A stretch of 64,000 nt of DNA, from contig NZ_BCNB01000006.1 in the NCBI RefSeq assembly GCF_001485575.1, positions 620,001-684,000 on the forward strand, in the 5' to 3' direction. Made by a program: the position numbers and the translations under genes. A model generated the notes under the pieces. It had not been told where the DNA came from. It made no database searches and worked only from the letters and a program-made list of their open reading frames with translations. The stretch comes from Haloarcula sp. CBA1127 (GTDB taxonomy: Archaea > Halobacteriota > Halobacteria > Halobacteriales > Haloarculaceae). Position 1 is the stretch's first letter; each line of letters begins with the position of its first letter. This document shows, piece by piece, positions 19,946 through 57,883 of the stretch.

Positions 19946-20001
19946 ACTAGGAACAATCTTTTCCGGGCTTGTTTCTGCCCGCAGCACTTTATCGAATGCG
20001 A

Positions 20002-20305
20002 ACAGCCAGAAAGCCCCTGCCGTCTCGGCTCCCGCGACTCGCTGCGCTCCGGTCGGTGCTTGCGTCGTCGGGATTCGCCGAGACGGCAGCCCCTTTCAGT
20101 CCCACCTGTAGATGGTTGCCCAAGCTATGCTGGGTGGGACTGAAAGGGGTGGCTGGCTGAACGACGGCGGACGAAGCAAGGACCGCAACGCAGTGAGTAG
20201 CGAGGGACCGAAGGTCCCTCGGACCATGCGAACGGGCGTGAAGCGCCCGTGAGCAGAGACCGCAGCGAGGCCCCCGAGTTCAGCCAACCGGGGCTTTCTG
20301 GCTGT
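20002..20305. repeat. 304-bp hairpin-rich element with perfect 16-bp terminal inverted repeats (four-way junction)
   Basis: The ends ACAGCCAGAAAGCCCC (20002-20017) and GGGGCTTTCTGGCTGT (20290-20305) are exact reverse complements. Inside, three stems follow each other with 0-2 nt between them: TGCCGTCTCGG 20018-20028 with 20078-20088 (11 bp); CCCCTTTCAGTCCCACC 20090-20106 with 20133-20149 (17 bp, perfect); and 20151-20162 with 20278-20289 (12 bp, one mismatch). The third arm carries two smaller hairpins at 20201-20221 and 20232-20250. No ORF is present. It sits between the nucleoside importer and leuS. A non-autonomous mobile element or a structured RNA are both possible. Confidence 0.85.
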
Positions 20306-20387
20306 ACACAGGAGCAGTCCAGTCGGGACCAGCTGCCTTCCCTAGCCGAACACTCATGTGCGCGGCAGGCACAGGACGAGATAGCAA

Positions 20388-34081: not shown

Positions 34082-34139
34082 GACAGCACGCGACCAACGG
34101 GAGCGTGCTGCTTTTTCGCCCACGTTTTTCGAGTCGACC

Positions 34140-34195
34140 GGGACCGAAGGTCCCGCTGACCATGCGAACGGGCGCTTTGCGCCCGTGAGCAGAGA
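34140..34195 (+). repeat. two-hairpin repeat module shared with the element before leuS
   Basis: GGGACCGAAGGTCCC and ACGGGCG...CGCCCGT hairpins, with the string ACCATGCGAACGGGCG between them and GTGAGCAGAGA after. The same order occurs at 20204-20259, inside the third arm of the 304-bp element. Only the hairpin loops and a few linker bases differ. Confidence 0.85.
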
Positions 34196-34227
34196 GTGGT
34201 TCGCGAGTATCGCGAGCGGACCCGACG

Positions 34228-57757: not shown

Positions 57758-57883
57758 ACAGCCAGAAAGCCCCCTCGCGGAGGGCGAGGGCTCACTGTGT
57801 TCGCCCTCGTAGCGCTCGGTCCCTTTCAGTCCAACCCATCCCAGATTGATCGGCCTGCGTCAGATGGGCTTTCCGGGTGTACA
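57758..57883. repeat. degenerate copy of the 304-bp hairpin element
   Basis: The left end ACAGCCAGAAAGCCCC (57758-57773) is identical to the left terminus at 20002-20017. CCCTTTCAGTCCAACCC at about 57822 matches the first arm of stem B, and GGGCTTTCCGGGTGTACA at 57866-57883 resembles the right end (GGGCTTTCTGGCTGTACA) with three changes. Most of the centre is missing. It lies between the DUF4129 operon and hemB. Confidence 0.75.

What the first reader, a model, noticed from the sequence alone, without database searches (positions are those of the whole stretch)
20002..20305. 304-bp element folds as a perfect four-way junction with 16-bp terminal inverted repeats
Four stems (16, 11, 17 and 12 bp) meet with almost no unpaired bases, and the third internal arm carries two more hairpins. 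Such complete nesting does not arise by chance. It has no ORF. It might be a non-autonomous transposon (related in idea to palindrome-associated elements known in haloarchaea), or a structured RNA transcribed ahead of leuS.
Basis: seen in the sequence. Interest (0 to 1): 0.88.

Follow-up and report, generated by a model that had tools for sequence, protein, structure and literature searches.

The report
Haloarchaeal hairpin repeats with variable stems
The window carries one copy of a dispersed, non-coding hairpin element found throughout the salt-loving archaea, whose stems differ in sequence from copy to copy yet stay paired; it is probably a mobile element handled as folded single-stranded DNA, but nothing that moves it was found.

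Summary
Window 20002-20305 folds as a four-stem junction with perfect 16-bp terminal repeats (shuffle z -11.6 and -11.8). It is a dispersed family, not a one-off.

The unit is two ~105-nt hairpin modules, head to head, sharing a central stem. The third arm contains a separate double-hairpin repeat. A covariance model built from the module hits 124 of 145 Halobacteria genomes (50 of 58 genera; 33 or more copies in some) and none of 99 genomes of other classes in the phylum. Rfam has nothing like it.

The 12-bp stems vary at nearly every position but stay paired (96.9% of cells; covariation 0.694 against 0.183 shuffled). In modules of other genera, wobble mismatches lie almost only on one strand (30:1), so that strand probably acts folded and single-stranded.

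In Haloarcula the unit extends to CTAG on both sides. The CTAG-to-repeat spacing is a multiple of 3 nt (115:11:2), without coding signal. Between species the same site can hold unrelated cassettes. No target duplication, linked transposase or association with Y1 transposases was found, and no orientation bias relative to genes.

Best reading: a non-autonomous repeat acting through folded single-stranded DNA, working like REP/PATE/attC sites but failing membership of each. RNA and template-switch maintenance remain open.

The parts
19947..20345 (.). Whole unit in this window: CTAG - left spacer - hairpin core - right spacer - CTAG
   Evidence: CTAG 25-75 nt outside the core repeat: 128 observed, 12.9 expected; exchange and presence/absence breakpoints at CTAG in orthologous sites
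19947..19950 (.). left outer CTAG
   Evidence: read; position 56 outward from the core repeat, phase 2 mod 3 as in 115 of 128 cases
20342..20345 (.). right outer CTAG
   Evidence: read; position 41 outward, phase 2 mod 3
20002..20017 (+). left terminal inverted repeat ACAGCCAGAAAGCCCC
20290..20305 (+). right terminal inverted repeat GGGGCTTTCTGGCTGT
20009..20097 (-). hairpin module 1 (folded strand is -)
   Evidence: covariance model R1, 97.5 bits, E 1.8e-20
20142..20298 (+). hairpin module 2 (folded strand is +), with nested double hairpin
   Evidence: covariance model R1, 71.6 bits, E 1.9e-14
20018..20029 (+). variable 12-bp stem of module 1, one side (other side 20077-20088)
20090..20149 (+). 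central arm: 17-bp stem (20090-20106 with 20133-20149), sequence-conserved
20151..20162 (+). variable 12-bp stem of module 2, one side (other side 20278-20289; one C.A mismatch)
20195..20262 (+). nested double-hairpin repeat (hairpins 20201-20221 and 20232-20250), a separate repeat family
   Evidence: stand-alone matches elsewhere in the genome
57758..57880 (.). second, decayed copy in the window
   Evidence: R1 hit 57765-57827, E 0.0053; terminal repeat and central motif read

Best explanation
It is a non-autonomous, dispersed DNA element built from hairpin modules. Each module consists of GAAAGGGGC, a sequence-variable 12-bp stem, a conserved asymmetric internal loop and core loop, the returning stem, and GGGGCTTTC. 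In Haloarcula two modules face outward from a shared central stem, flanked by spacers ending in CTAG. Most likely one strand of each module (5'-GGGACTGAAAGGGGC-arm-GGGGCTTTC-3') folds when DNA becomes single-stranded and is recognised by shape and loop bases by an enzyme supplied in trans. That enzyme moves or replaces the CTAG-bounded cassette. Shown: dispersed copies, class-wide distribution, covarying stems, strand-biased wobble in other genera, CTAG boundary with 3-nt phasing, cassette exchange at fixed sites. Inferred: that the folded molecule is DNA rather than RNA, that an enzyme acts on it, and that CTAG is where it acts.
For: Model R1: 124/145 Halobacteria genomes, 50/58 genera; 19 of 21 Halobacteria and 0 of 99 other-class genomes in a phylum-wide draw. 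Covariation on 60 arms not chosen for pairing: 96.9% of cells paired, score 0.694 vs 0.183 +/- 0.012 shuffled and 0.06-0.13 slid; RNAalifold 29 pairs, 25 with double changes. Asymmetric T/CTT internal loop beside the stem kept in 71/80 and 88/90 arms. Wobble is strand-biased: on the C-strand A.C 30 vs G.T 1 in single modules of other genera, p 3e-8; 12 vs at most 1 without the two innermost positions. No orientation preference to genes: 17 same vs 14 opposite. Cassette replacement or absence at orthologous sites; element inverted in place in L078.
Against: No mobilising enzyme found: no recurrent gene within 1.5 kb across 77 loci. The obvious ssDNA transposase family (Y1_Tnp) shows no association: genomes G129, G038, G063, G065 and G069 have 27 or more modules and no Y1; G086, G034, G139 and G175 have Y1 and no module. 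No target-site duplication and no clean insertion allele; the G002 and G009 sites are mostly shared, so recent transposition was not caught. Wobble asymmetry is weak and not significant within Haloarcula (19:11 and 7:2). Strand-biased mutation could also produce the asymmetry.
Confidence: 0.48

Rival explanations
1. It is a structured RNA. The folded strand is transcribed and works as a non-coding RNA, with the repeats being dispersed RNA genes or retro-copied modules.
For: Strong covariation with a conserved asymmetric internal loop; G.U-type wobble almost only on one strand in other genera; class-wide conservation.
Against: Tens to over a hundred copies per genome; no orientation bias to neighbouring genes; in Haloarcula the two modules of one unit have their folded strands on opposite DNA strands; wobble pairs are rare overall (about 1.4% G.T plus A.C in Haloarcula arms); no Rfam family. 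No transcript data available.
Confidence: 0.2
2. It is inert palindromic repeat DNA. Pairing is kept by template-switch (quasipalindrome) correction, which rewrites one side of the stem from the other, not by selection.
For: Stems change much faster than loops and almost always on both sides: 402 of 996 stem pairs changed on both sides, 20 on one side, in arm pairs with loops at least 80% identical. Few one-sided intermediates.
Against: The asymmetric internal loop next to the stem should have been corrected too, but is conserved; loop sequences are conserved across genera; the wobble asymmetry and the CTAG phasing need something more.
Confidence: 0.15
3. It is a conventional MITE: terminal inverted repeats cut by a DDE transposase of a classical insertion sequence, with CTAG as target duplication.
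For: Perfect 16-bp terminal repeats; CTAG at both outer ends, like the 4-bp targets known for some IS families (own knowledge).
Against: Terminal repeats lie 28-76 nt inside CTAG; absent alleles carry other sequence, and in L356 and L351 the right flank resumes exactly after CTAG with no CTAG at that end in the absent allele; no transposon with these ends seen; internal stems should not need pairing.
Confidence: 0.1
4. It is a regulatory or chromosome-organising intergenic site, bound by a host protein as a cruciform or by its loops, with no mobility of its own.
For: Intergenic, mostly upstream of at least one gene (65 of 71); stable at orthologous sites between G002 and G009.
Against: Contents of the same site differ completely between close species; copy number ranges from 1 to over 27 within Halobacteria, and some lack it.
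Confidence: 0.07

Closest known systems
PATEs of Haloquadratum walsbyi (PMC3119063)
   Same: Short, non-coding, many copies, near-terminal palindromes, no target duplication, heterogeneous terminal 20-50 bp next to a conserved short terminal oligonucleotide.
   Different: PATEs have no terminal inverted repeats and are related to IS605 transposon ends. This has perfect repeats, no IS605 link and no Y1 association.
Small mobile repeats SMR-A/B of Haloquadratum (PMC3119063)
   Same: Terminal inverted repeats not related to any transposon, no target duplication, unknown mobilisation.
   Different: SMRs are about 80-110 bp with high sequence conservation (commonly >95% within a type) and SMR-A target PATEs. 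Units here are mostly 250-400 bp with stems different in each copy. Sequences were not compared.
'SwitchRepeats' and deletion-coupled insertions of Haloquadratum (PMC3119063)
   Same: Unrelated sequences or inverted copies of a repeat at exactly the same position in two strains.
   Different: Reported there as a class of differences, not tied to this hairpin family.
REP/BIME sequences and TnpA-REP (PMC8266576)
   Same: High-copy intergenic palindromes; imperfect stem with a bulge; acted on as folded single-stranded DNA; a short conserved motif nearby.
   Different: REP partner is an HUH (Y1) transposase; here no association. REP hairpins are short; these are about 105 nt with covarying stems.
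attC sites of integrons (PMC3053210)
   Same: Recognised on one strand through folding and extrahelical bases.
   Different: No integrase or gene cassettes seen; whole-stem covariation and CTAG-bounded spacers have no attC counterpart known to me.
Repetitive or double hairpin elements of mitochondrial genomes (PMC2800124)
   Same: Invasive, structurally divergent hairpin repeats in intergenic DNA.
   Different: Different compartment and sequence; no strand-specific or phasing signal known to me.

Membership tests
PATE (PMC3119063) | no terminal inverted repeats | tested here: not met
   perfect 16-bp terminal repeats
PATE (PMC3119063) | no target duplication | tested here: met
   no duplication at absent alleles L356, L351, L352, L354, L137; L084/L088 ambiguous
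PATE (PMC3119063) | ends related to IS605-type transposons or Y1 transposase | tested here: not met
   no paired core repeats around Y1 loci L206-L214; no association across 145 genomes
SMR (PMC3119063) | terminal inverted repeats unrelated to known transposons | tested here: inconclusive
   no linked transposase found, but ISfinder not available
SMR (PMC3119063) | about 80-110 bp, >95% identical copies | tested here: not met
   full units mostly about 250-400 bp, stems differ in almost every copy
SMR (PMC3119063) | inserted in PATEs or IS605 palindromes | not tested
   -
MITE | terminal repeats shared with an autonomous transposon | tested here: not met
   no core-repeat pair enclosing a transposase in the regions read; core-repeat pairs listed for G002/G009 mostly under 700 bp; no recurrent gene
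MITE | target-site duplication | tested here: not met
REP/BIME | imperfect hairpin acted on as one folded strand | tested here: inconclusive
   structure and strand-biased wobble fit; activity on single strands not testable
REP/BIME | cognate HUH Y1 transposase in the genome | tested here: not met
   high-copy genomes without Y1_Tnp; window genome has none
attC (integron) | integron integrase in the genome | not tested
   -
structured non-coding RNA | covarying stems | tested here: met
structured non-coding RNA | match to a curated family | tested here: not met
   no gathering-level Rfam match; weak chance hits only
structured non-coding RNA | transcript | not testable with these tools
   no RNA-seq

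The most novel reading that the evidence does not exclude
The modules are the substrate of an undescribed halobacterial recombination system that recognises a folded single strand by shape. It lets or makes stem sequences be rewritten on both sides together, and measures its flanks in 3-nt steps out to CTAG, swapping whole cassettes at fixed intergenic sites.
Probability: 0.22. Interest if true: 0.87.

Novelty: new variant of a known kind. Interest (0 to 1): 0.62.

Why it matters
A covarying hairpin family this widespread in Halobacteria, absent from Rfam, gives those genomes a REP-like repeat of their own. It may help explain the 'unrelated sequence at the same position' differences reported between haloarchaeal strains. 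The copies are natural experiments: hundreds of different stems with the same loops. Which strand acts, whether as RNA or DNA, and what reads the 3-nt phasing are directly testable in cultured haloarchaea.

Tried and rejected
Protein coding in the flanks: spacer lengths are 3n and show an RNY pattern, but in-frame stops equal column-shuffled expectation (14 vs 14.8; 48 vs 47.2). Autonomous partner: none near Y1 loci and no recurrent neighbour. Phage origin: no phage match; plasmid matches are mostly single arms in Natrialbaceae, three of which sit near an OB-fold protein. Transcription terminator: convergent gene pairs are rare among hosts (6 of 71). Arms evolving by swap of whole hairpins only: does not explain where new stems come from. 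A first in-genome test of wobble strand by central-arm orientation gave no clear asymmetry (58 G.T vs 41 A.C over all stems), because arm types and centre orientation are not linked. One search was meant to use only orthologous arms, but its BLAST step also matched the elements themselves, so its pairs are mostly non-orthologous arms with similar loops. Literature searches for this repeat found only the Haloquadratum elements; subscription papers are not covered.

Full report
WHAT WAS CHECKED. The 304 bp at 20002-20305 have perfect 16-bp terminal repeats and fold into a four-stem junction on either strand; none of 100 shuffles folds as well (z -11.55 and -11.80). Stems are 16, 12, 17 and 12 bp, the last with one mismatch. 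No gene-like ORF lies inside. Rfam has no gathering-level match and only chance-level ones at E up to 5.

IT IS A FAMILY. BLAST finds 18 matches in the window's own genome, matches in 52 of 60 relatives, and over 100 in each of two Haloarcula genomes, G002 and G009. The 13-mer GCCAGAAAGCCCC occurs 132 and 135 times there against 0 for the reversed control, and 13 times in the window's genome.

ANATOMY. Reading 44 complete copies shows a core terminal repeat, an arm, a conserved central arm, a second arm in the opposite direction and the other terminal repeat. Shorter forms have one arm, only the centre, or just the two repeats back to back; longer ones carry nested hairpins. Some copies are flanked by arrays of the terminal repeat at 45-bp spacing. 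The extra hairpins in the window's third arm belong to a separate double-hairpin repeat that also stands alone at 34138-34196.

STEMS COVARY. Of 222 arms selected only by flanking motif, 144 have a perfect 12-bp stem and 45 more miss one pair; most positions show three or four Watson-Crick pair types. In a formal test on 60 arms chosen without regard to pairing, 96.9% of cells pair, 271 cells have both sides changed, and the covariation score is 0.694 against 0.183 +/- 0.012 for shuffles and 0.06-0.13 for slid controls. RNAalifold extends the structure to 29 pairs, 25 with double changes. Beside the stem an asymmetric internal loop (T against CTT) is kept in 71/80 and 88/90 arms. Among arm pairs with loops at least 80% identical, 402 of 996 stem pairs differ on both sides and only 20 on one side. 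These pairs are not all independent, because arms recur in several comparisons.

DISTRIBUTION. The 15-mer centre motif is found in named genomes of many genera: Halobaculum, Haloparvum, Haladaptatus, Halorussus, Natrinema, Natronococcus, Halopiger, Halovenus, Haloglomus and others, mostly as single modules. In a draw from the phylum it matches 19 of 21 Halobacteria and 0 of 99 genomes of other classes. In the window R1 hits both arms, on opposite strands pointing outward, and a decayed second copy. The adjacent pairs I noted in the printed tables of other genomes have the same outward arrangement.

WHICH STRAND. On the strand GAAAGCCCC-arm-GCCCCTTTCAGTCCC, stem mismatches in single modules of other genera are A.C 30 and G.T 1 (p 3e-8), in modules with a centre 11 and 2 (p 0.02), and in Haloarcula 19:11 and 7:2 (not significant). 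Of the 30, 18 fall on the two innermost positions; without them it is 12 against at most 1. On the complementary strand these are G.T wobbles, which a folded single strand tolerates. That strand therefore probably works as RNA or as single-stranded DNA; strand-biased mutation is the main alternative. Its direction has no relation to neighbouring genes (17 same, 14 opposite, 14 divergent, 6 convergent). In a Haloarcula unit the two folded strands lie on opposite DNA strands. Both points speak against a cis-acting or single RNA and for DNA, but do not settle it.

BOUNDARIES. Outside the core repeats CTAG is enriched tenfold at 25-75 nt (128 vs 12.9), and its phase to the repeat is 115:11:2. Spacings in the arrays are also multiples of 3 (33, 45, 48, 54, 57). 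The flank of the folded strand shows the same 3-nt periodicity in 91 independent modules of other genera (pyrimidine 0.52, 0.75, 0.39 by phase in the first 30 nt), fading after 33 nt. Stops in the periodic frame equal column-shuffled expectation, so this is not explained by coding. It remains unexplained.

TURNOVER AT FIXED SITES. Upstream of leuS, relatives hold the unit in many internal versions, inverted in L078, and two (L084, L088) lack it, with a 4-nt ACAG overlap at the junction that could be duplication or microhomology. The segment between repeat and CTAG is swapped there while the sequence beyond CTAG stays. Between G002 and G009 many sites are shared but spacers and arms are often unrelated. 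L112 and L130/L142 hold different cassettes between the same CTAGs. Where the unit is absent, other short sequence lies in its place and the right flank resumes exactly after CTAG (L155 vs L356, L107 vs L351). This resembles the deletion-coupled insertions and 'SwitchRepeats' of Haloquadratum (PMC3119063).

WHAT MOVES IT. Unknown. Y1 transposase loci are not enclosed by these repeats, the window's genome has none, and Y1 presence does not track module number. No gene family recurs beside the modules.

VERDICT. A class-wide family of dispersed, covarying hairpin modules, probably acting as folded single-stranded DNA in trans-mobilised cassettes. It works like REP, PATE or attC sites but is a tested member of none. 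The RNA reading and neutral template-switch upkeep keep real weight.

Noticed in passing
window 34138-34196 and 20195-20262: A separate double-hairpin repeat (two perfect variable hairpins joined by conserved linkers such as GACCATGCGAA and TGAGCAGAG) occurs alone and nested in arms; other double-hairpin types with a GTGATCACGA linker are nested in many copies.
   Followed up: partly
window 20342-20357, upstream of leuS (20388): GCCGAACACTCATGTG is conserved upstream of leuS in nearly all relatives read, with or without the element, and duplicated in L094; it looks like a leuS leader or promoter motif.
   Followed up: no
L334 2501-4023, L335 2501-4042, L336 2501-4007: On three Natrialbaceae plasmids a single module sits about 540 bp upstream of an OB-fold (RPA/Ssb-like) protein, with the intervening non-coding DNA also conserved; possibly a replication region.
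   Followed up: partly
L068 1411-1939, L108 1001-1181: Head-to-tail arrays of the core terminal repeat at 45-bp spacing flank some units on one or both sides.
   Followed up: partly
F-strand flanks of modules, Haloarcula and other genera: Non-coding 3-nt periodicity (RNY-like) of the first 30-50 nt after the hairpin, and 3n spacing to CTAG.
   Followed up: partly
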